Assembly (NCBI GenBank): GCA_016873165.1 | Contig: VGXV01000036.1 | Span: forward strand, 1 to 33,056 | Origin: Planctomycetota bacterium | GTDB lineage: Bacteria > Planctomycetota > Brocadiia > Brocadiales > Brocadiaceae | Direction: 5' to 3' | Length of the DNA stretch: 33,056 nucleotides | Part shown: positions 12,849-22,399 of the stretch, one piece after another | How positions within the stretch are numbered: position 1 is the stretch's first letter | How the letters are laid out: each line of letters opens with the position of its first letter | Position numbers and translations under genes: made by a program | Notes under the pieces: generated by a model | The model's input: the letters and a program-made list of their open reading frames with translations, nothing else | The model's database searches: none | Told to the model about the DNA's origin: nothing

Positions 12849-13274
12849 GTTTCAATCCACGCTCCCGCATGGGGAGCGACACGTTGTCGGACATGATTGG
12901 CACAAATAGCCTGGTTTCAATCCACGCTCCCGCATGGGGAGCGACACCGGGACATGTACGACGCCCTCGGCTTTGACGCGTTTCAATCCACGCTCCCGCA
13001 TGGGGAGCGACGAGATATTATGGGCGATGCTTTAAAAGACGTATTGTTTCAATCCACGCTCCCGCATGGGGAGCGACTCGGGGAGCGGGGTAAGTACACG
13101 ACATTTGATGAGTTTCAATCCACGCTCCCTCATGGGGAGCGACCAATCGTATAAGATCATCATCGCGCAACGACGGGTTTCAATCCACGCTCCCGCATGG
13201 GGAGCGACCGACTTATCCTCTCAGGCTGTCCTCAAGCGTAGTGTTTCAATCCACGCTCCCGCATGGGGAGCGAC
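12849..13274 (-). CRISPR. Type I-C CRISPR array, 7 repeats, 6 spacers
   Basis: Seven 32-base repeats start at 12849, 12914, 12980, 13046, 13112, 13177 and 13243, separated by spacers of 33 or 34 bases. Six are identical; the fifth (13112-13143) has T for G in the loop. On the minus strand each repeat begins GTCGCTCCC, has a 7-bp stem (CGCTCCC/GGGAGCG) around a 5-base loop and ends in the 11-base tail TGGATTGAAAC. That tail fits the 5' handle left by Cas5 cleavage in type I-C. The minus strand is therefore the crRNA strand, and the leader is on the high-coordinate side next to cas2. A partial repeat end (12806-12814) followed by exactly 34 bases precedes the first full repeat. Confidence 0.97.
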
Positions 13275-13463
13275 CCCCCCCTGCACGTATAACATAATAC
13301 GTGCATACAACTTATATAGTATTTTTTGCGAACCTTTCTTTTTCAGGATAACAAATCATTATATTGCCAAAGATCATTTTTCTAACCTTCCTATTGGTAA
13401 TATGATATTGATTTGCGAACCTTGCAGAAAAACTCTGTGAACTTAGGGTTCGCAATGCTCTTT
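13275..13463 (-). promoter_or_regulatory. CRISPR leader
   Basis: This 189-bp A/T-rich stretch lies between the end of cas2 and the first repeat in the direction of array transcription. It holds three copies of the 9-mer TTGCGAACC: 13326-13334 and 13413-13421 on the plus strand, and inverted at 13447-13455. A perfect 8-bp inverted repeat, GCACGTAT/ATACGTGC (13283-13304), sits nine bases from the first repeat. The minus strand includes a TATAAT-like word in the middle (GGCAATATAATG), but no good -35 partner was found. Leaders of this kind carry the array promoter and the docking site for new-spacer integration. Confidence 0.8.
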
Positions 13464-13751
13464 TTAAACAATAAGCGGCCCATCCTGGTCTATTGATTTT
13501 TTAGCGCCTACATGCTCTACACGATGTTTCCAGTTTGAACCTAAAAAGTAAAATCGCAGACTGTCTTTTTCAGCATCTATTTCATCAATGAGTCTCTGGC
13601 GTAAGACCGTCCATTGTGCAGGGTCAACGATGCACTCAAATACCGAATACTGCACTCTCTGTCCATAGTCAAGGCACGCACGTGCAACCCTGCGAAGCCG
13701 CTTTTGTCCTTTATCCTCGGAAGCAACATCATAACTGACCAGTACAAACAT
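13464..13751 (-). CDS. cas2: CRISPR-associated endonuclease Cas2 (type I-C)
   Basis: 95 residues, standard size. It opens with the ferredoxin-fold strand MFVLVSYDV, whose Asp is the conserved active-site residue, followed by the basic RRVARACLDYGQRVQYSVFEC segment typical of Cas2. It forms the spacer-integration complex with Cas1. The ORF starts nine bases after the cas1 stop, and a GGAGG lies inside the end of cas1. It is the last gene of the operon and is followed directly by the leader and array. Confidence 0.97.
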   Translation of the reverse strand: MFVLVSYDVASEDKGQKRLRRVARACLDYGQRVQYSVFECIVDPAQWTVLRQRLIDEIDAEKDSLRFYFLGSNWKHRVEHVGAKKSIDQDGPLIV

Positions 13752-13760
13752 GATTTTATT

Positions 13761-14792
13761 TTACCTCCATATAAATGGCGGATAGGCGTCAAGATCACCC
13801 CTTACGTGCCGCGCCAGAAGCATTGCCTGGATATGAAAAAGCAGTCCAATCGTTACTTTTTCATTAAGGAACGGATGCAGAATCTCATCCTGTTTTCGTG
13901 TCTGATATGCGGTAAGTACGGTTTTTCTTGTTTCGTCATCCATCAGCACTGCGCCATTTTCTTTCTTTTCAAAGCCTTTTCCCTTTACCTGTCCCAGATT
14001 AATCAATGAAAGGATAAGCCGGTCTGCAAGAAACGGTCGGAATTCTTCCATAAGATCAAGGGCAAGGCCAGGCCTTCCCGGACGGTCTCTGTGGAGAAAC
14101 CCAACCGCCGGGTCAAGGCCTACTGCCTCTAAAGCCGACCTGATATCGTGCATGACAATTGTATACATAAATGACAGCAGGCAGTTTACCGTATCCAAAG
14201 GAGGCCGACGGTTCCGTTCCTGAAAGGTAAAATCTTCTTTCTGTGAAAGAATCAAATGATCAAATGCGCCAAAATAGGTCAAAGCGGCTTCTCCTTCTAT
14301 CCCGCGTAAGATGTCCGGCGACGGCTCCGATTGCAATCGTTTCATAGAGGTTGCGAGCTTTCTTGAAGCAGTGGTCAAGGCTTCAGCGTTGACTTTATCA
14401 GGGTGATCCCGAAGGACACGTTCAATCACTATGCGGCAATTAGCGATCTTGCCGGTTAATATCGCCCGTGCAACACATGCGGATGTTTTAGGATCATCTG
14501 CCTGACGGTACTGTTCACGCCTCAGGAGAACGTTACCGGATACAGGCCCCTGCACTTTTGCAAGGAAACGTCCGTACTCCGTCAGAAAACTTATGGAAAC
14601 ATTCTGCTCGGCGCAGTAACCCATCAGGTAAGGGCTGCAGGATACCTGCCCGAAACAGACAATACCCCCGATGGTATGCACCGGGAGGCGCAGGCGCACT
14701 TCGTTTTCCACTTTGACAATAACGGACTCTCCCTCCTTTGCAAGATATGCCCCTTGTGTTGTTACGAATAAGGTATTCAGGTGTCTTTTCAT
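13761..14792 (-). CDS. cas1: CRISPR-associated integrase Cas1 (type I-C)
   Basis: 343 residues, typical of Cas1c. The N-terminal beta domain (KRHLNTLFVTTQGAYLAKEG) precedes the helical catalytic domain. Metal-ligand residues are visible: E166 (ILRGIEGEAA), H234 (GFLHRDRPGRPG) and D246/E249 (LALDLMEEF). It inserts new spacers at the leader end with Cas2. Two 60-base lines that I counted (14101-14160, 14281-14340) are 55-57% G+C, clearly above the cas3 and cas8 genes of the same operon. A dispersed repeat separates it from cas4, and no ribosome site is evident before the ATG. Confidence 0.97.
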   Translation of the reverse strand: MKRHLNTLFVTTQGAYLAKEGESVIVKVENEVRLRLPVHTIGGIVCFGQVSCSPYLMGYCAEQNVSISFLTEYGRFLAKVQGPVSGNVLLRREQYRQADDPKTSACVARAILTGKIANCRIVIERVLRDHPDKVNAEALTTASRKLATSMKRLQSEPSPDILRGIEGEAALTYFGAFDHLILSQKEDFTFQERNRRPPLDTVNCLLSFMYTIVMHDIRSALEAVGLDPAVGFLHRDRPGRPGLALDLMEEFRPFLADRLILSLINLGQVKGKGFEKKENGAVLMDDETRKTVLTAYQTRKQDEILHPFLNEKVTIGLLFHIQAMLLARHVRGDLDAYPPFIWR

Positions 14793-14906: not shown

Positions 14907-15569
14907 TCATAGCAGATCAGATTCTGCATCCTGCTGGTCAATAAATCCTGTCAGATATTTACTCGCCCTTCCCTTTGTATCACAAACCTTTGGCATGCAT
15001 AATTCAACCAGTGAACAGCTTTTACACTTTTTTGAGTATTCCGGTTTAGGGGTTATTCCTGAGCGAATGAGTTCATGAACATTTCTTGCAGTTTCTTCCG
15101 TCTCTGTTCTCAAAGCCGTGTCAAATATAACACCCTGCCTGTGTCTGGTAGTACCGTAGAACAGGGCGCCTTCGTTAATGGCACAATTGAGCATTTCCTC
15201 AAGGCACATGGCTTGTGCGCAGAGTTGTACCTTATCGCAGTTGTCCGCTTTTGGTTTTCCTCTCTTATATTCTACGGGGAACGGATGCCACGTATCTCCC
15301 TGCCGGTGAAATTCCACGACATCGGCCTTACCGATCAGGCCAAGTCGCAATGATCTGAGAGGAACGCCGTATTCGATGCGGATGTTTCCTCTCGATTCTC
15401 TGTCTGCCGTATCAACCTTGTCGTGCAGGATTCTGCCTTCGGCAGTAAACTGATTTTCATTCCACAACTGCTCAATGTGAATCAGGGCGCATTGCCGTTT
15501 GCAGAACACGAAGTGCTGCAAAGCAGAAAGCTGAATCAAATCATCTTCATTATATGTACAATAAGTCAT
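14907..15569 (-). CDS. cas4: CRISPR-associated exonuclease Cas4 (type I-C)
   Basis: 220 residues from ATG 15569. The frame is open to an ATG at 15635, but that start would overlap the upstream gene by 59 bases and add 22 residues not expected in the family. Cas4 features are LSALQHFVFCKRQCALIH near the N-terminus (C23 as the first cluster ligand), a RecB-type nuclease core (GKADVVEFH, FPVEYKRGKPK) and a C-terminal CKSCSLVELC trio completing the Fe-S ligands. Cas4 trims prespacers and selects for the PAM. The first residues, MTYCTYNE, are unusual and come from a short repeat shared with the upstream gene. AGGAG (15588-15592) is 18 bases from the ATG, longer than ideal. Confidence 0.95.
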   Translation of the reverse strand: MTYCTYNEDDLIQLSALQHFVFCKRQCALIHIEQLWNENQFTAEGRILHDKVDTADRESRGNIRIEYGVPLRSLRLGLIGKADVVEFHRQGDTWHPFPVEYKRGKPKADNCDKVQLCAQAMCLEEMLNCAINEGALFYGTTRHRQGVIFDTALRTETEETARNVHELIRSGITPKPEYSKKCKSCSLVELCMPKVCDTKGRASKYLTGFIDQQDAESDLL

Positions 15570-15576
15570 ATACGTC

Positions 15577-16140
15577 TTATTTTTTTCTCCTCTCAGACCG
15601 CACCCGATAAAGCCTTTCTGTAAATCCACCCTCATTTAAAAAATCCTTTTCCAGCGTTCTTAACTGCTGGTCAAGCAGGTAGTTTGTCTGGTGAATCAGG
15701 CAGATCATGGTGTTTGCAGCAACCTCCGGAGGCGAAGCCTCAATATAGGTCTTATAAGTCAAATAAGACCTATTTTTTTGGTAGCAAAGATTTCTGACTT
15801 CTTTAGACCGAGGATAATCTTTTGTCCAGAGAGTAAGCCCTTTTTGCCTCAAAAAATCCTGAAAATCCAGAAGCAGTTCTTCAAGGCTTGCCCGTGCCAC
15901 GCCGATAAGTTTTAGCTCAGTCTTTTTAGAAGTGCCCGAAGCCATACTCCCTTCAGCGATATTCTGCTTGCCGCTGCGCGCCGCCTGCACCATCTGGTCA
16001 TGGGTGCGGGAGCGGCGGTCGATGAAACGGTTGCAGAATACTATCGTAGCATCATACACAATCTCCGCCATTTTGTAAGACTGTAGTTCCCGATACCCGC
16101 CGTGCGGTGGTATGAGTTGGGATTCTTTTGGGTCAGTCAT
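15577..16140 (-). CDS. Four-helix-bundle protein (S23/Avd-like) embedded in the cas operon
   Basis: 187 residues with the hallmarks of the four-helix-bundle family (23S rRNA intervening-sequence protein; also Avd of diversity-generating retroelements): the LQSYKMAEIVYDATIVFC helix, DQMVQAARSGKQNIAEG, and KKTELKLIGVARASLEELLLDF. It is basic overall and ends in RVRSERRKK, suggesting nucleic-acid binding. A variable insert (KNRSYLTYKTYIEA) lies before the last helix. The ATG immediately follows the cas7 stop with no gap, its ribosome site AAAGGAT lies inside the end of cas7, and cas4 starts seven bases after its stop. It is therefore an integral operon member, though not a standard type I-C gene. 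Its role is unknown. Confidence 0.88.
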   Translation of the reverse strand: MTDPKESQLIPPHGGYRELQSYKMAEIVYDATIVFCNRFIDRRSRTHDQMVQAARSGKQNIAEGSMASGTSKKTELKLIGVARASLEELLLDFQDFLRQKGLTLWTKDYPRSKEVRNLCYQKNRSYLTYKTYIEASPPEVAANTMICLIHQTNYLLDQQLRTLEKDFLNEGGFTERLYRVRSERRKK

Positions 16141-17046
16141 TTAAATCCTTTCAATAACAACATTGTTCGGATTAAATATTATAGGCTCTAATCCAGAAAG
16201 ACTCTTAAGTTTGATTGAATAATCCTCGATCTTCTTCGGGTCAGTTACTCCATCTTGAGGCGCAACGCTCAACGACCGATGAACCACAGCAGAGGAATAT
16301 TGACCATTATTAGAATTATGTTGCCACCATATTACAGCTACAACCTCCATGCTGCCAGCAGGCCGAGCCGAAGATTCATCGTTGTCAAACAGATGTTCAA
16401 GCGCATTTTTAACGGCGGTAGCATCCTCATCTTTAAACCATGTTTTTGATGCAAGCTGGGGATTTATGGTGCCATAAGATACATACACTCCATGATCAAC
16501 ACGATGTTTCATTCCCATAGTATCTGACGCTTTCTTCGTTCCATCTCCTTCACCGCTAACACTTTTTGTAATCTGTATGCTGCTAATACGACTATTGACT
16601 GGTGCAACGCTAAAGGCTGAATGAATTGAAACTGGACCCCGGATACCAACAGATACGCCTTCACCTTTCTTTTCGCTTCCATAAGCAAATACCTGTCCGA
16701 AAGCCCGTATATCAAGCCATTTTTTGCAAACAGCTTCCCTAAATTTTTTCTCATCTTTCCAAACATCTTTTGGCAATTCCCCTTCAGCTCTGGTTCTAAG
16801 GCTGGGATAATCATCCAATTTATTGTCATCGGATTGAACAAAAACGCTGTATAAATATTCACCCTTGTCATTTTTCATCTCCATAAGACGATTTCTGATT
16901 TTTCTTTTAATACAGACATCAGATAGCTCGCCAAAGCCGTCGTAATTCGTCCTCGGACGATTGCCATTTAACGGATCCCCATTAGGGTTAGCTCCTTTCA
17001 CGCTGAACACGACCGCAAAATCAATTTTATTTTTCAACGTTTCCAT
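16141..17046 (-). CDS. cas7: Cascade backbone protein Cas7 (type I-C, Csd2)
   Basis: 301 residues, typical of Csd2. The N-terminus carries the RRM-type start and family signature ANPNGDPLNGNRPRTNYDGFG followed by SDVCIKRKIRNRL. Further conserved parts are DIRAFGQVFAYG and GIRGPVSIHSAFSVAPV. Multiple copies coat the crRNA in the interference complex. AAGGAGG sits seven bases before the ATG, and the gap to cas8 is 14 bp. The gene's own 3' end contains the ribosome site of the four-helix-bundle gene. Confidence 0.97.
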   Translation of the reverse strand: METLKNKIDFAVVFSVKGANPNGDPLNGNRPRTNYDGFGELSDVCIKRKIRNRLMEMKNDKGEYLYSVFVQSDDNKLDDYPSLRTRAEGELPKDVWKDEKKFREAVCKKWLDIRAFGQVFAYGSEKKGEGVSVGIRGPVSIHSAFSVAPVNSRISSIQITKSVSGEGDGTKKASDTMGMKHRVDHGVYVSYGTINPQLASKTWFKDEDATAVKNALEHLFDNDESSARPAGSMEVVAVIWWQHNSNNGQYSSAVVHRSLSVAPQDGVTDPKKIEDYSIKLKSLSGLEPIIFNPNNVVIERI

Positions 17047-17060
17047 AATTAATCCTCCTT

Positions 17061-18986
17061 TTATTGATCTGTTTCTGATAATGTTTCTTGTTCGCTTTCA
17101 TTGGTGTTACTGCTACCCTTTGGCCTGAGTGCTTCACGCTGACAGTGATAGCCCAACAAAAATTCTCCACTTAACGGTCTATCACTTGTAAAGTCTTCGA
17201 TTGGATCAAATTTGCACATCACCTCATCCATCATGTCCTTGTAATATTTGGCACCCCCTAACCTCGACATATAAGGAGAGAGGGAAAGATATATCTGTCT
17301 CCATGTCTTGTTAGGACGATCAGCGAATTGTTGCATGTAGCGTGCTGCATTAGTATCTCGTTTTTCTCCGGAATTGTAAAGTGCATGCCCTTCAAGCCGA
17401 TCCGCAATTGCAAGCAGTCTTCCATAAAGATAGTCCCTTGTCTTTCTGTCTGGATCTAACGCCATGCTGTAGCCCTCCTTTTCGTTAAATTTTTTATAAA
17501 GTGCGCAAGCTATACAGAGAGTTTTGTTCCATTCCCAACCCTCCATGCCTGCCCGATTACATGCACGCCGAACCGTTGATACTACAATATCTCGCGGTAT
17601 TTGCTGACCGTCAATAATGCAAGGTAAAAGGCGTTCAACCGTTGACTTCTTTAATTTATCATCTACCTTGCTTCCATATGCTGCTTCCGCGATGTCTTTG
17701 GGAGCAGGCGCGCCGACAAATTTAATGCGTTTTTTTGTTTCGGGATTGTATCCATAGTCATGAACCCAAGCACAGGTATCATGCCATTTCTCTAAACGCT
17801 CAAGAAATTCCGATCCTGTCAGTTCACGATAAAAAGTAATTGCCATCCGACCTTGAGTTGCTGAATCAAGTCCCATAACCACGACACTGCTTGTATCTCC
17901 CAAGTCGGCTTTGTAACCAGCTATTTTCTGTCTTAATTTTATAGCAAGATTCTGTGCGACCGATACGTTATCAGAATCATCACTTTTAAGGTTATCTTCT
18001 CCTAAAATAGCCAGAGAGTCGGCAAAAGGGTCTGGAATGTCTGTGCCTGAAGTAGACCATGCAACAATAGCTTGATCTCCATTACGATAACCTTGCCGGC
18101 TGATAAGCCAACGTAATGTGCCGTGCGCTTTCTGGGTTACCTCAAAACCAACTCCACAAGTCTGATATGTGTTATGTTTTTTTGTATCCGTAAATCTACC
18201 CCTAAAAGTGAATCCGTCCCAGTCATTTGAGGATATGAGCTTTGCCTTATCGCCATCATTACGTAATTTTGCTGGATGAAGATCAGCCATAAATAATTCC
18301 TTACCTGTAACATAACAAAGAGATTTCTCTTTTTTAGTGCCTGAGTAATAGTCAATCCAACTCTTCCAAAGAGTTTCATCCTCCCATGTTTTTGAACAGT
18401 GATCGTTGGGGTTTTCAACTTCCCACCGAATAAACGCATCTGCTTGCCAAGCCTCATTCTGAAACAACGCAAAGATAATAGGTTTAGCTTTCCTATCCCC
18501 TTCCCATTTTTTTAACAACTTGCCGTCATCACCAGCAATCAATATTTTCTCGTCAATCAAATCTTTAGCAACAGTTCCCTTATTGACATAATTGAGAACT
18601 ACTTTTGCCTTTGGGTGGCTGCTCTTTGATTTACACCATGCCTCAAGATTTGATATATACGATTTAAAGTAGGGTTTTTTATCTCCCCCATAATCTTTAT
18701 AGTCTTTTGCAACATATTGCAGTTTGTCTGATAACGGGTGTGGAGCCTCTCCGCTAGTCCGACCACCCGAGCTTTTTTCAGTACATGGAATAATCGTTCT
18801 TGCATCGTCTTTAGGCACTACTCTGGCTCTCTTAAAATTCCCTTGATGATCAATCACAATTTCAATTTGCGCCTTGTTCGTTGTGTGACAGATCGGAAGA
18901 AGCGGTACCTCTCTTTCAGAAGCAACCTTACCTATCACGGACTGACAATTCTCATAGGTTTCGTATAATTTCTGTATCCAACTCAT
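17061..18986 (-). CDS. cas8c: Cascade large subunit Cas8c (Csd1)
   Basis: 641 residues, near the usual Csd1 size. Recognised by the opening MSWIQKLYETYENCQS, the central CYVTGKELFMADLHPAKLRNDGDKAKLISSND and GFTFRGRF segments, QGYRNGDQAIVAWS, and the C-terminal half with DPDRKTRDYLYGRLLAIADRLE and MQQFADRPNKTWRQIYLSLSPY. In type I-C, Cas8 recognises the PAM and also supplies an internal small-subunit (Cas11) product. An internal start for such a product is likely in the last third but was not assigned. The ATG overlaps the cas5 stop by four bases (ATGA). Base composition varies along the gene; lines I counted are 30% and 48% G+C. Confidence 0.96.
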   Translation of the reverse strand: MSWIQKLYETYENCQSVIGKVASEREVPLLPICHTTNKAQIEIVIDHQGNFKRARVVPKDDARTIIPCTEKSSGGRTSGEAPHPLSDKLQYVAKDYKDYGGDKKPYFKSYISNLEAWCKSKSSHPKAKVVLNYVNKGTVAKDLIDEKILIAGDDGKLLKKWEGDRKAKPIIFALFQNEAWQADAFIRWEVENPNDHCSKTWEDETLWKSWIDYYSGTKKEKSLCYVTGKELFMADLHPAKLRNDGDKAKLISSNDWDGFTFRGRFTDTKKHNTYQTCGVGFEVTQKAHGTLRWLISRQGYRNGDQAIVAWSTSGTDIPDPFADSLAILGEDNLKSDDSDNVSVAQNLAIKLRQKIAGYKADLGDTSSVVVMGLDSATQGRMAITFYRELTGSEFLERLEKWHDTCAWVHDYGYNPETKKRIKFVGAPAPKDIAEAAYGSKVDDKLKKSTVERLLPCIIDGQQIPRDIVVSTVRRACNRAGMEGWEWNKTLCIACALYKKFNEKEGYSMALDPDRKTRDYLYGRLLAIADRLEGHALYNSGEKRDTNAARYMQQFADRPNKTWRQIYLSLSPYMSRLGGAKYYKDMMDEVMCKFDPIEDFTSDRPLSGEFLLGYHCQREALRPKGSSNTNESEQETLSETDQ

Positions 18987-19708
18987 TTATGCACCTCCCA
19001 TTCTTCACAACCTTCCAGCAATCCTTCCTCTGCTAATCCCACAGATTGAGGCGGATTGGCTTTCATTGATCTGACGAGTTTTAGAATAGAACATTCTTCG
19101 GGTCGGACAAAATCAATTTTGCCGTCAACCATCTTTGGACGCCAGAACCTGGCGTGAAGCTCTTTTCCTCCAAGCTCGTCAGGATAATCAAAGCCATGAA
19201 ACATCAGGTCGAATGCTATCTCGCCATAATCATCATAATCACCTTGTCCTTCGCCAAACTTACACGGCTCAACATATCCCTGGCACTCCCGCGCACCTAA
19301 AAATATATCCCGTCTTCCGCCTTTTTCTATCATTCGTCTGGCAACGCAATGATGTTTGTTTTCATTCCTGTCTTTCTCCATGTCTTTCCGATTCATGTTC
19401 CACTCAAAGTGTGCCTGAACCTGATATTCAACATCAGCCAGATAAGTATAGATCGCAAGAGAATTACCGCCACCATACTCAACAGGTTTTGCACTTCGTG
19501 TCTGAGTCCTGATACGATTCACAACTCTGACCTTATCAATAATCCAAACTATAGTCGGCTTCCAATAAACCGAGCTCAATACACCCTTCAATGCCTCGTA
19601 TGTGGGGATGTGATAAGAACATTTTTCTCCACCGAGCTTTGTCAGCGGGTCTGTGAAAAGGGCGTATTTACCTGAAACTTTAAATTCCACCTTGTTTTCT
19701 TTTTCCAT
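18983..19708 (-). CDS. cas5c: crRNA-processing endoribonuclease Cas5c (Cas5d)
   Basis: 241 residues, normal for the catalytic Cas5 of type I-C. The N-terminus VEFKVSGKYALFTDPLTKLGGEKCSYHIPTYEALKGVLSSVYWKP is characteristic. FFLGARECQ-like (DIFLGARECQGYVEP) and GEIAFDLMFHGFDYP follow. In this subtype Cas5 cuts the pre-crRNA at the base of the repeat stem, consistent with the 7-bp stem and 11-base tail seen in this array. A strong AAGGAGG precedes the ATG by five bases. The gene lies 13 bp after cas3 and overlaps cas8 by four bases. Confidence 0.97.
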   Translation of the reverse strand: MEKENKVEFKVSGKYALFTDPLTKLGGEKCSYHIPTYEALKGVLSSVYWKPTIVWIIDKVRVVNRIRTQTRSAKPVEYGGGNSLAIYTYLADVEYQVQAHFEWNMNRKDMEKDRNENKHHCVARRMIEKGGRRDIFLGARECQGYVEPCKFGEGQGDYDDYGEIAFDLMFHGFDYPDELGGKELHARFWRPKMVDGKIDFVRPEECSILKLVRSMKANPPQSVGLAEEGLLEGCEEWEVHK

Positions 19709-19721
19709 GAAAACCTCCTTT

Positions 19722-22208
19722 TTATGCGTTTAAAAAATCCATGTTTCTTACTGGCTTTTCGCTTAATCCGAACTCATCGCTATAATACTGCTCATCAAGG
19801 CACAAAATCCCCGAACCTTTTTGTGCCTCATAAACAGCCTTTTCTTTTTCTTGCAATCGTTTTAAGACATCAGGGAATACATTTACCGAATAACGTTGCG
19901 CCTGCCGGATTAGTTTATATTGCTTTTCTAATTCTTGAACAGAGCAAAGTTTACTAATAATCTCTTTTCCTTCTTGTCCATATGGCACAACGATTCCGCG
20001 CGTTATAGACTCAATAGCCTGAAAAGATTTGGCAGCCGTCATAAAAGCTTGCTTCAAAGGGATTGACGGATATTTATCATTGTTGATTCGCCTGTACTCA
20101 GCAACTGATAACGAATTAACTGAAAGAAGATTGAACAAATTATCTTCTTGCCCGACTGGGGAATTAGCTGTGACAGGATAATTCATTTCATCTTTCCTTT
20201 GATAGAAATAGTATTGATAATACTGTTCCATTGCTTCGGGACTTATCATGTCATTTCCAAGTCTTGCCGGGTTGTCTTTAAATTCACCAAGCAGGCGCTC
20301 AGTTTTCTCTTTGCCGATTCTGATATCCTCAAGCCTATTTATATTTTCTTCCGCAGGATTTATTATGAATACCTCGCCCCGCTTTGGATACAGCTCATTA
20401 TGACGATTGCATCTTCCAGCGGCTTGTGCAATTGAATCAAGTCCAGCCACAAAGCGAATGACCGAACCAAAGGAAATATCCACTCCTGCCTCAATAAGTT
20501 GGGTGCTTACACAAATAACTGGCTTTGGGTTTTTTGGATCAAGACACTTCTTTACTTGATTTAACACATCAAGCCTATGAGCAGGACACATATAAGTGCT
20601 TAAGTGATACGTTTCTACGTTGTCTATCTGCTTACATTGTTGATAAATCTCCCGAGCCGATGTCTTCGTATTTACAACCACCAGAACACTGCCTGCCTCA
20701 ACAACTTTTTTACTTGCAAGTTCTTTTATTTCATCGTTGTTCCAGCCACCGGTTTTTGTTTTGTCATAAACCTCAACGCGCTTTAGATCATCGAATAACT
20801 GTCTCGCATTAGGAATCATTTGTTGTTCTGAAGTAATAGTCAATGTCCTTGACTTCGGCTCAATCTTATCCAAGAGCGGCTGAGTTGCCGTGCAAAGCAC
20901 AATTGTCGAGCCGCAATTATTTACAAAAAAATTAACAGCCATATTAAACAATTGCACACACTTTACCGGCAATGTCTGGACTTCATCAAAGATAATTACG
21001 GCATTTGCAAGCTGATGCATTCTGCGTGGGCCTCTTGTTCCAGAACCAAATAAAGCCTCAAGAACCTGCACATTGGTCGTTAGCACAACAGGTGCATCCC
21101 AGTTTTCAGAAAGAACCTTTTGCCTTGCTGTCTCTTTATCAGGCAATAAATTGGAGTGATGTTCCAAGATAATGCTGTCTAGGAAATTACCATTTTTATC
21201 CCTTTCTTCCAATACCTTGCGTATCTCGTCAGCGTTCTGATCAATAATAGTTGTATAAGGAAGCACATAAACAATTCTGTCCATCTTGTGCTTGTCCGCA
21301 TGATGTAAAGCAAATCGCAGGCTGGCAAACGTTTTGCCCCCGCCCGTAGGGACTGTCAGTTGATATAAACCTTTCCGCCTGTCAGCAAAACCATAACACG
21401 CTTGTGATATTTTCTGTCGTATAGCATTAATTCCAGTTGAGTCAAATTCATCCAACTTTTTATTTAATCTGCTTATCAAAACTTTCCAATCCATATAGTT
21501 CCCATAATGCCTTAATTTCTTTAAGGCCTGCTCCTCAAAATCAGCCGTGTCCAACCGGTCGGCATCAATAAGACAGCTAAAAAGAAACCGTAACATTAGT
21601 CCGTATTTAAAACACAGTGTTTCTTTAGAATCATCATTGGTTCTCAATGACTTAAATCTTTCAATGAGAGTTTGTGTAAAATCTTTAGATTGCAACCGAT
21701 TTCTAATATACTCTTTAGCCTGATCGCTGAGTTTTTTGAATACTGCATCAATATGTGTTTTTTCTTCCTGTTGGTGCATGCGCTTAGAATAGGTATCTTT
21801 GCCGTCAGGAGTAATACAATCAATCAAGCCGGAATGATGTGAGGCTAAACATGTTGATAAAACTTGTGCAACGAATCTTTCTTCTGTCCCTTCATCAGCA
21901 AGATTTTTATAAATCCATTGTGCGCTTGCTGTAGAATGATCAATTTTACCCTTCTTTCCCTCAGCATCAACATAATCGTCTTCATCTGGATCAATAAGGC
22001 CAACAGCTGATTTAATGTATTGCTGAAATTCTTGACTTGCTTTACCGACGTCGTGTAGAAGCCCAAGCAGTTCGCCTTGTTCTTTCATATTAACTTTTGA
22101 AGCAAACTCACCAGATAGCGTTGAAACCGCTTCGAGATGATGTGACAGCCAGTGTACTTCACAGTCTTTTTCTCTGCGATGAGCTATATAATCAACATTT
22201 TGAAACAT
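19722..22208 (-). CDS. cas3: CRISPR helicase-nuclease Cas3 (HD + DExH helicase)
   Basis: 828 residues from ATG 22208, chosen because AAAAGGAT precedes it by eight bases and it aligns with known Cas3 starts (DYIAHRREKDCEVHWLSHHL). HD nuclease: H23/H24, H52-D53 (GLLHDVGK), H91, H124-H125. Helicase: Walker A PTGGGKT (287-293), DEVQ box (408-411), TATQP (440-444), and motifs STQLIEAGVDISF and QAAGRCNRH. It unwinds and degrades the DNA bound by Cascade. Two counted lines are 30% and 43% G+C, much lower than the cas3 remnant just upstream. It is the first intact gene of the operon. Confidence 0.97.
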   Translation of the reverse strand: MFQNVDYIAHRREKDCEVHWLSHHLEAVSTLSGEFASKVNMKEQGELLGLLHDVGKASQEFQQYIKSAVGLIDPDEDDYVDAEGKKGKIDHSTASAQWIYKNLADEGTEERFVAQVLSTCLASHHSGLIDCITPDGKDTYSKRMHQQEEKTHIDAVFKKLSDQAKEYIRNRLQSKDFTQTLIERFKSLRTNDDSKETLCFKYGLMLRFLFSCLIDADRLDTADFEEQALKKLRHYGNYMDWKVLISRLNKKLDEFDSTGINAIRQKISQACYGFADRRKGLYQLTVPTGGGKTFASLRFALHHADKHKMDRIVYVLPYTTIIDQNADEIRKVLEERDKNGNFLDSIILEHHSNLLPDKETARQKVLSENWDAPVVLTTNVQVLEALFGSGTRGPRRMHQLANAVIIFDEVQTLPVKCVQLFNMAVNFFVNNCGSTIVLCTATQPLLDKIEPKSRTLTITSEQQMIPNARQLFDDLKRVEVYDKTKTGGWNNDEIKELASKKVVEAGSVLVVVNTKTSAREIYQQCKQIDNVETYHLSTYMCPAHRLDVLNQVKKCLDPKNPKPVICVSTQLIEAGVDISFGSVIRFVAGLDSIAQAAGRCNRHNELYPKRGEVFIINPAEENINRLEDIRIGKEKTERLLGEFKDNPARLGNDMISPEAMEQYYQYYFYQRKDEMNYPVTANSPVGQEDNLFNLLSVNSLSVAEYRRINNDKYPSIPLKQAFMTAAKSFQAIESITRGIVVPYGQEGKEIISKLCSVQELEKQYKLIRQAQRYSVNVFPDVLKRLQEKEKAVYEAQKGSGILCLDEQYYSDEFGLSEKPVRNMDFLNA

Positions 22209-22243
22209 GTTTAAAATCCTTTTCGACAGAAATTTATTTAAAA

Positions 22244-22399
22244 TCAAAATCCTGCCAGACAAGCCCATTCACCTGACCCGAATTCATCTGCAAACGATTT
22301 GGCGAGTCCGGCAACCCCTGGCAGATGATCTTCAAGCAGGTGCCATTCCTCAACGGGCTTGCCTTCCATACTGTGCGCGAAATACTTCTTTTTAATCAT
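22244..22399 (-). pseudogene. 5' remnant of a second, different cas3 gene (HD domain start)
   Basis: From ATG 22399, with GAGGG six bases upstream, 51 codons read MIKKKYFAHSMEGKPVEEWH, then LLEDHLPGVAGLAKSFADEF and GSGEWACLAGF, ending in TGA at 22244-22246. This matches the start of Cas3 HD domains (YFAHS-x-x-G-x-P-x-x-EW-x-x-L-x-x-HL ... W-x-x-LAG-x-WHDLGK). It stops exactly where WHDLGK should follow, and no continuation exists in any frame before the intact cas3 starts 35 bases later. The segment is about 55% G+C (33 of 60 in each of two counted lines). It is not a duplicate of the intact gene: the sequences differ throughout. Confidence 0.75.

What the first reader, a model, noticed from the sequence alone, without database searches (positions are those of the whole stretch)
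15577..16140. A four-helix-bundle (S23/Avd-like) gene is built into a type I-C cas operon between cas7 and cas4
The gene starts directly after the cas7 stop with no spacer, its ribosome site lies inside cas7, and cas4 begins seven bases after its stop, so it is made with the Cas proteins. The family includes Avd, the basic nucleic-acid-binding partner of reverse transcriptases in diversity-generating retroelements, and the proteins encoded in 23S rRNA intervening sequences. It is not a standard type I-C component. It sits at the border between interference genes (cas3-5-8-7) and adaptation genes (cas4-1-2). Possible roles are binding crRNA or prespacer nucleic acid, or a passenger that settled at a module boundary. 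This is my best candidate for an undescribed accessory Cas protein.
Basis: partly seen in the sequence, partly recalled or inferred. Interest (0 to 1): 0.78.

Follow-up and report, generated by a model that had tools for sequence, protein, structure and literature searches.

The report
Helix-bundle gene at CRISPR module boundary
A small, probably nucleic-acid-binding helix-bundle protein is encoded between the "attack" and "memory" genes of this bacterium's CRISPR system, and relatives sit at the same kind of boundary in other CRISPR types and next to restriction-enzyme genes in several phyla, so it looks like a shared but still uncharacterised helper or hitch-hiker of bacterial defence operons.

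Summary
ORF 15577-16140 (-), 187 aa, lies between cas7 and cas4 of a complete type I-C operon. It belongs to TIGR04258 ("four helix bundle suffix"), a long subfamily of the S23/IVP fold (AF2 pLDDT 87.6; 2gsc Z 16.3).

It is not a chance insertion. In the same order, 13 of 22 type I-C Cas1 loci carry an intact copy, 2 a decayed one and 7 none; no non-I-C Cas1 locus carries one. cas7-4HB-cas4-cas1 recurs in MAGs labelled Planctomycetota, Nitrospirota, Desulfobacterota, Lentisphaerota and Verrucomicrobiota. Copies also sit at the effector/adaptation border of type I-E, after Cmr6 in III-B, between cas12a and cas4 in V-A, and directly upstream of hsdR. Short S23 genes also flank cas1 and cas2.

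The gene is under purifying selection but dispensable, and moves between cas lineages (85-88% identity where cas1 is 45-48% identical). That argues against an obligate Cas-complex subunit. I favour a cis-acting, nucleic-acid-binding boundary cassette; adaptation co-factor and selfish passenger are close rivals. No function was tested.

The broad link is not new: Altae-Tran 2023 (Fig. 6B) lists "23S rRNA IVP" with CRISPR adaptation modules. The boundary rule, exchange and R-M link are what this adds.

The parts
15577..16140 (-). 4HB gene (TIGR04258 four-helix-bundle suffix protein, 187 aa)
15583..15729 (-). suffix domain = fourth long helix plus basic tail (residues 137-185)
15745..15773 (-). 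palindrome in the helix 3-4 loop: 11-bp stem, 7-nt loop, encodes NRSYLTYKTY; the only match of its pattern in the genome
15547..15586 (-). second, weaker copy of the loop repeat (78% identical) spanning the 4HB stop and the cas4 start
16141..17046 (-). cas7 (Csd2), last effector gene, abuts the 4HB start
14907..15569 (-). cas4 (start at 15569 chosen by homologues)
13761..14792 (-). cas1 (type I-C)
13464..13751 (-). cas2
17061..18986 (-). cas8c (Csd1)
18983..19708 (-). cas5c
19722..22268 (-). cas3
12849..13281 (.). CRISPR array, 7 repeats of about 32 nt

Best explanation
The gene encodes an S23/IVP-fold protein of the four-helix-suffix subfamily. It is a horizontally exchanged, dispensable but selected cassette that settles at the border between the effector genes and the adaptation (nuclease/integrase) genes of CRISPR operons, and upstream of the cutting subunit in type I restriction-modification operons. 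Shown: anatomy, recurrence, position, exchange, purifying selection and decay. Inferred: it forms a basic homo-oligomer (homologue 2gsc is a ring of five bundles) that binds structured nucleic acid, most likely the hairpin in its own stretch of the operon mRNA, and so tunes or insulates translation or processing of the downstream nuclease genes in cis. A cis role explains why the same protein works beside unrelated Cas1, Cas4, Cas12a and HsdR partners.
For: Position in different architectures: cas7|cas4 in many I-C loci, after cas3 in a divergent I-C locus cut by its contig end (L158), cas5e|cas1e and a second type I-E operon (L131, L133), cas12a|cas4 (L069), cmr6|csx1 (L208) and upstream of hsdR (L054-L056, L140). 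Census: 13/22 I-C against 0/45+ non-I-C Cas1 loci, p 2e-8. Tree: cas label needs 8 changes against 28 shuffled; at least four entries into I-C operons. Exchange: 4HB 85-88% identical (pS 0.54-0.65) where cas1 is 45-48% (pS 0.82-0.85). dN/dS 0.05-0.13. Hairpin excess over synonymous recoding in the loop: 22% against 8% of windows at z<-2; best window of the window's own gene z -5.8. Topoisomerase Zn ribbon in four members tested. Tight coupling: 26 of 30 cas-linked copies are within 60 bp of the next same-strand gene. Short S23 genes also near Cas1 (10 of 104, 0.23 expected) and HsdR (3, 0.2 expected).
Against: No binding, expression or phenotype data. The hairpin is not over-structured in every member, differs in sequence between subfamilies, and may come from 9-nt repeats tolerated in a loop. 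The junction copy next to cas4 folds weakly (z -1.0). Several relatives sit beside housekeeping genes (L059, L066, L146, L147), so the defence bias is not absolute. The defence bias outside CRISPR rests on about 20 inspected loci and the HsdR scan.
Confidence: 0.42

Rival explanations
1. Adaptation co-factor: the bundle acts in trans with Cas4-Cas1-Cas2, for example binding prespacer ends or the repeat, as Avd does with a reverse transcriptase.
For: Always at or inside the adaptation side, never between cas3, cas5, cas8 and cas7 in the I-C loci read; I-E, III-B and V-A copies lie next to or a few genes before cas1; IVP listed with CRISPR adaptation modules (PMC10910872); basic protein, Avd-type fold.
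Against: Same subfamily upstream of hsdR with no Cas1; exchanged between operons whose Cas1 and Cas4 are under 50% identical; missing or decayed in 9 of 22 I-C loci, mostly beside intact cas1-cas2-cas4.
Confidence: 0.25
2. Selfish or neutral passenger: a mobile gene of unknown transfer mechanism that survives at operon junctions where it does little harm, enriched in defence islands because these are traded often.
For: Several entries, tandem and truncated copies (L041, L045/L048, L047, L137), pseudogenes (L210, L215), cas4 stub carried into a type I-E operon (L133); housekeeping contexts for some relatives.
Against: Low dN/dS in intact copies; repeated landing on the same border rather than on other junctions; no recombinase, terminal repeats or target-site duplications recognised; palindrome pattern unique in the genome.
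Confidence: 0.28
3. Chance insertion in one strain.
For: The two other genomes of the genus lack it.
Against: Linked homologues in many I-C loci of several phyla.
Confidence: 0.01

Closest known systems
TIGR04258 four helix bundle suffix domain-containing protein (NCBIfam)
   Same: Full-length suffix match over the curated cut-off (86.7 bits, cut-off 40) plus the TIGR02436 bundle; the window gene is a member.
   Different: The family name carries no function. The cas-border clade, exchange between CRISPR types and R-M linkage are not part of what the library says about it.
S23 / 23S rRNA intervening-sequence protein (PF05635; structures 2gsc, 2rld)
   Same: Same four-helix fold, Z 16.3 and 14.3.
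   Different: Below the Pfam gathering score; has an extra helix 3-4 loop and C-terminal tail; not inside an rRNA gene.
Avd of diversity-generating retroelements
   Same: Distant fold relative (4DWL and 2GSC are related according to PMC10053308).
   Different: No reverse transcriptase noticed among the ORFs of the window; the Pfam bAvd model is not hit by the window protein.
'23S rRNA IVP' among CRISPR adaptation-linked genes (Altae-Tran 2023, PMC10910872, Fig. 6B)
   Same: Association of an IVP-type protein with CRISPR adaptation modules.
   Different: Only the legend and main text could be read; subtype, subfamily, position rule, exchange and the R-M link could not be compared.

Membership tests
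TIGR04258 four-helix-suffix family | 49-position suffix over the curated cut-off after a four-helix bundle | tested here: met
   86.7 bits, cut-off 40, residues 137-185; TIGR02436 over cut-off
S23/IVP fold (PF05635) | four-helix bundle matching solved S23 structures | tested here: met
   2gsc Z 16.3, rmsd 2.0 over 114; 2rld Z 14.3, rmsd 1.5 over 104
S23/IVP fold (PF05635) | Pfam gathering score | tested here: not met
   27.8 bits, cut-off 33.8
S23/IVP fold (PF05635) | encoded inside a 23S rRNA intervening sequence | tested here: not met
   inside a cas operon
DGR Avd | reverse transcriptase and template/variable repeats nearby | tested here: inconclusive
   no RT recognised by eye among the ORFs; flanks were not scanned with RT profiles
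Type I-C Cas component | present in most I-C loci | tested here: not met
   13 of 22 intact in the order; I-C-like loci L111-L115 in other families lack it
Pentameric nucleic-acid-binding bundle | oligomeric state and binding | not testable with these tools
   only homology, pI 9.4 and the Zn ribbon of relatives

The most novel reading that the evidence does not exclude
S23-fold proteins form a general class of boundary genes in bacterial defence operons: a bundle gene with a hairpin in its coding sequence is placed before the cutting or integrating genes of CRISPR (I-C, I-E, III-B, V-A) and type I R-M systems, and controls their expression in cis. This would also suggest a function for the long-unexplained 23S rRNA intervening-sequence proteins.
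Probability: 0.3. Interest if true: 0.85.

Novelty: new variant of a known kind. Interest (0 to 1): 0.6.

Why it matters
S23/IVP proteins have had solved structures since 2006 but, to my knowledge, no known function, while Avd shows the fold can serve a nucleic-acid machine. A recurrent place beside CRISPR adaptation and restriction genes, together with exchangeability, gives a testable hypothesis for the family and a candidate regulator or helper of spacer acquisition.

Tried and rejected
Chance insertion: rejected by recurrence. Genome-wide palindromic element carrying the gene: the loop-repeat pattern occurs once in the genome. Phage or plasmid origin: no phage record, one distant Prevotella replicon (40%), one 54% viral contig. 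A different effector subtype in relatives with 30% Cas7: those tested are type I-C by NCBIfam, except the L095 Cas7, which is below the cut-off. Paper searches for 'four helix bundle suffix', TIGR04258 and R-M links gave nothing specific. Solved-structure sequence search gave only a chance hit. First hairpin script timed out.

Full report
Observation. The gene is real and placed as described. The 187-aa ORF starts on the base after the cas7 stop, and its Shine-Dalgarno-like sequence lies in cas7. The cas4 start supported by homologues is 7 nt after its stop; the longer automatic cas4 ORF is not. The operon cas3-cas5-cas8c-cas7-4HB-cas4-cas1-cas2 is type I-C throughout, with a 7-repeat array.

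Identity. TIGR04258 (four helix bundle suffix) matches end to end over its cut-off; TIGR02436 is over cut-off; PF05635 is below. The AF2 model (pLDDT 87.6) has long helices 19-38, 44-66, 71-98 and 137-169, so the 'suffix' is helix 4 plus a basic tail, with a 38-residue loop before it. Only the S23/IVP structures 2gsc and 2rld stand clear of the helical background. The protein is basic, pI 9.4. Four of the more distant members, all of those tested with a C-terminal Cys-rich extension, have a topoisomerase-type Zn ribbon.

Recurrence in the order. Of 18 other copies in the 13 of 59 relatives that carry the family, 14 lie in I-C cas operons; 3 of the 4 others lie directly upstream of hsdR and one next to a SNF2 helicase. 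Taken from the side of cas: 20 Cas1c loci over cut-off plus 2 contig-end loci; 13 have an intact 4HB, 2 a decayed one (L210 with stops and a deletion, L215 frameshifted) and 7 none; none of at least 45 other Cas1 loci has one. An earlier count gave 12 intact and 6 empty over-cut-off loci; the recount is 11 intact, 2 decayed and 7 empty, plus 2 contig-end loci with an intact copy.

Recurrence beyond. A genome scan (80 best of more than 560 relatives) and tblastn found cas7-4HB-cas4 in MAGs labelled Scalindua (Planctomycetota), Nitrospirota, Desulfobacterota and other deltaproteobacteria, Lentisphaerota and Verrucomicrobiota; MAG binning errors are possible for single cases (L162, labelled Chloroflexi). 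Profile searches showed type I-E (L131: cas7e-cas5e-4HB-cas1e-cas2e; L133: cas5e-cas6e-...-4HB-cas1e), type V-A (L069: cas12a-4HB-cas4-cas1), type III-B (L208: cmr6-4HB-csx1) and the end of a divergent I-C effector set (L158). Outside CRISPR: HsdS-4HB-UvrD/PDDEXK, Fic-4HB-HsdR, 4HB-HsdR, OLD-like AAA-4HB and 4HB-N6-methylase, but also kinases, transporters and metabolic genes.

Phylogeny and exchange. In a 130-protein tree the cas label needs 8 changes against 28 in shuffles (0 of 500); a main clade with all nearest cas-linked copies has SH-aLRT 89, and L041/L045/L162, L145 and L170/L172 are separate entries at the same junction. L131, labelled 'non' there, is the type I-E copy, so that clade is entirely cas-linked. 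Many inner branches are weak and the tree was a quick search. Against the window, L043, L044, L050 and L053 have 4HB 85-88% identical at pS 0.54-0.65, but cas1 45-48% and cas4 44-49% at pS 0.76-0.86, so the gene was exchanged after these cas lineages split. In L133 the 4HB is followed by a stub of about 34 aa of cas4 and then cas1e: a fossil of transfer out of an I-C operon. dN/dS is 0.05-0.13 where dS is finite.

The loop hairpin. The helix 3-4 loop is encoded by 9-nt repeats that form a palindrome in the window (11-bp stem; z -3.6 against dinucleotide shuffles; -5.8 against synonymous recoding). Across 119 members 22% of loop windows against 8% elsewhere are below z -2. Repeat sequences differ widely between subfamilies (SYLTYKTY, SDRSDLSDKSD, STLSTKSTQST). 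A second imperfect copy lies at the cas4 start in the window; L163 has a similar one. This is suggestive of a nucleic-acid-level role, not proof.

Short S23 genes. In 15 relatives 10 of 104 short TIGR02436 copies lie within 1.5 kb of Cas1 (0.23 expected) and 3 of HsdR (0.2 expected). Some flank cas1 on both sides (L097, L107), and in G017, G021 and G032 a short copy follows cas1, so S23 genes sit at up to three successive junctions of one operon.

Mechanism. Shown: boundary placement, coupling, exchange, selection, dispensability. Inferred: nucleic-acid binding and cis control of downstream nuclease genes. Exchange across divergent partners speaks against a specific Cas interface, and purifying selection against a purely neutral passenger, but the three models remain close (0.42 cis cassette, 0.28 passenger, 0.25 adaptation co-factor).

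Prior knowledge. The Fig. [quoted passage not shown] its supplement could not be read. The Avd relationship and the five-bundle quaternary structure of 2gsc are taken from PMC10053308 and its reference list. That the IVP family lacks a known function is my own background knowledge.

Noticed in passing
L047:2034-2354, L048:2617-2937, L107:10544-12314, L097:9664-11523: Short S23/IVP genes sit between cas1 and cas2 or on both sides of cas1, including non-I-C Cas1 loci.
   Followed up: partly
L133:8552-8670: A stub of about 34 aa of I-C-type cas4 follows the 4HB gene inside a type I-E operon, just before cas1e.
   Followed up: yes
L069:4714-10901: Type V-A operon cas12a-4HB-cas4-cas1.
   Followed up: partly
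L058:4038-5849: 4HB suffix protein in one open frame with a peptidyl-arginine-deiminase domain (604 aa); L146 has an in-frame DUF1848 domain.
   Followed up: partly
L068, L074, L084, L087: Subfamily of 4HB suffix proteins with a C-terminal topoisomerase Zn ribbon.
   Followed up: partly
L078:376-1896: Very long S-I/M-P/Q-S repeat expansion in the helix 3-4 loop, present in two tandem copies.
   Followed up: no
L163:8509-9170: cas4 start carries a copy of the loop repeat (NRSYMTYKTY) and cas4 appears frameshifted.
   Followed up: no
L218:6001-6564: A 54%-identical 4HB suffix gene on an IMG/VR contig, the only viral-collection hit.
   Followed up: no
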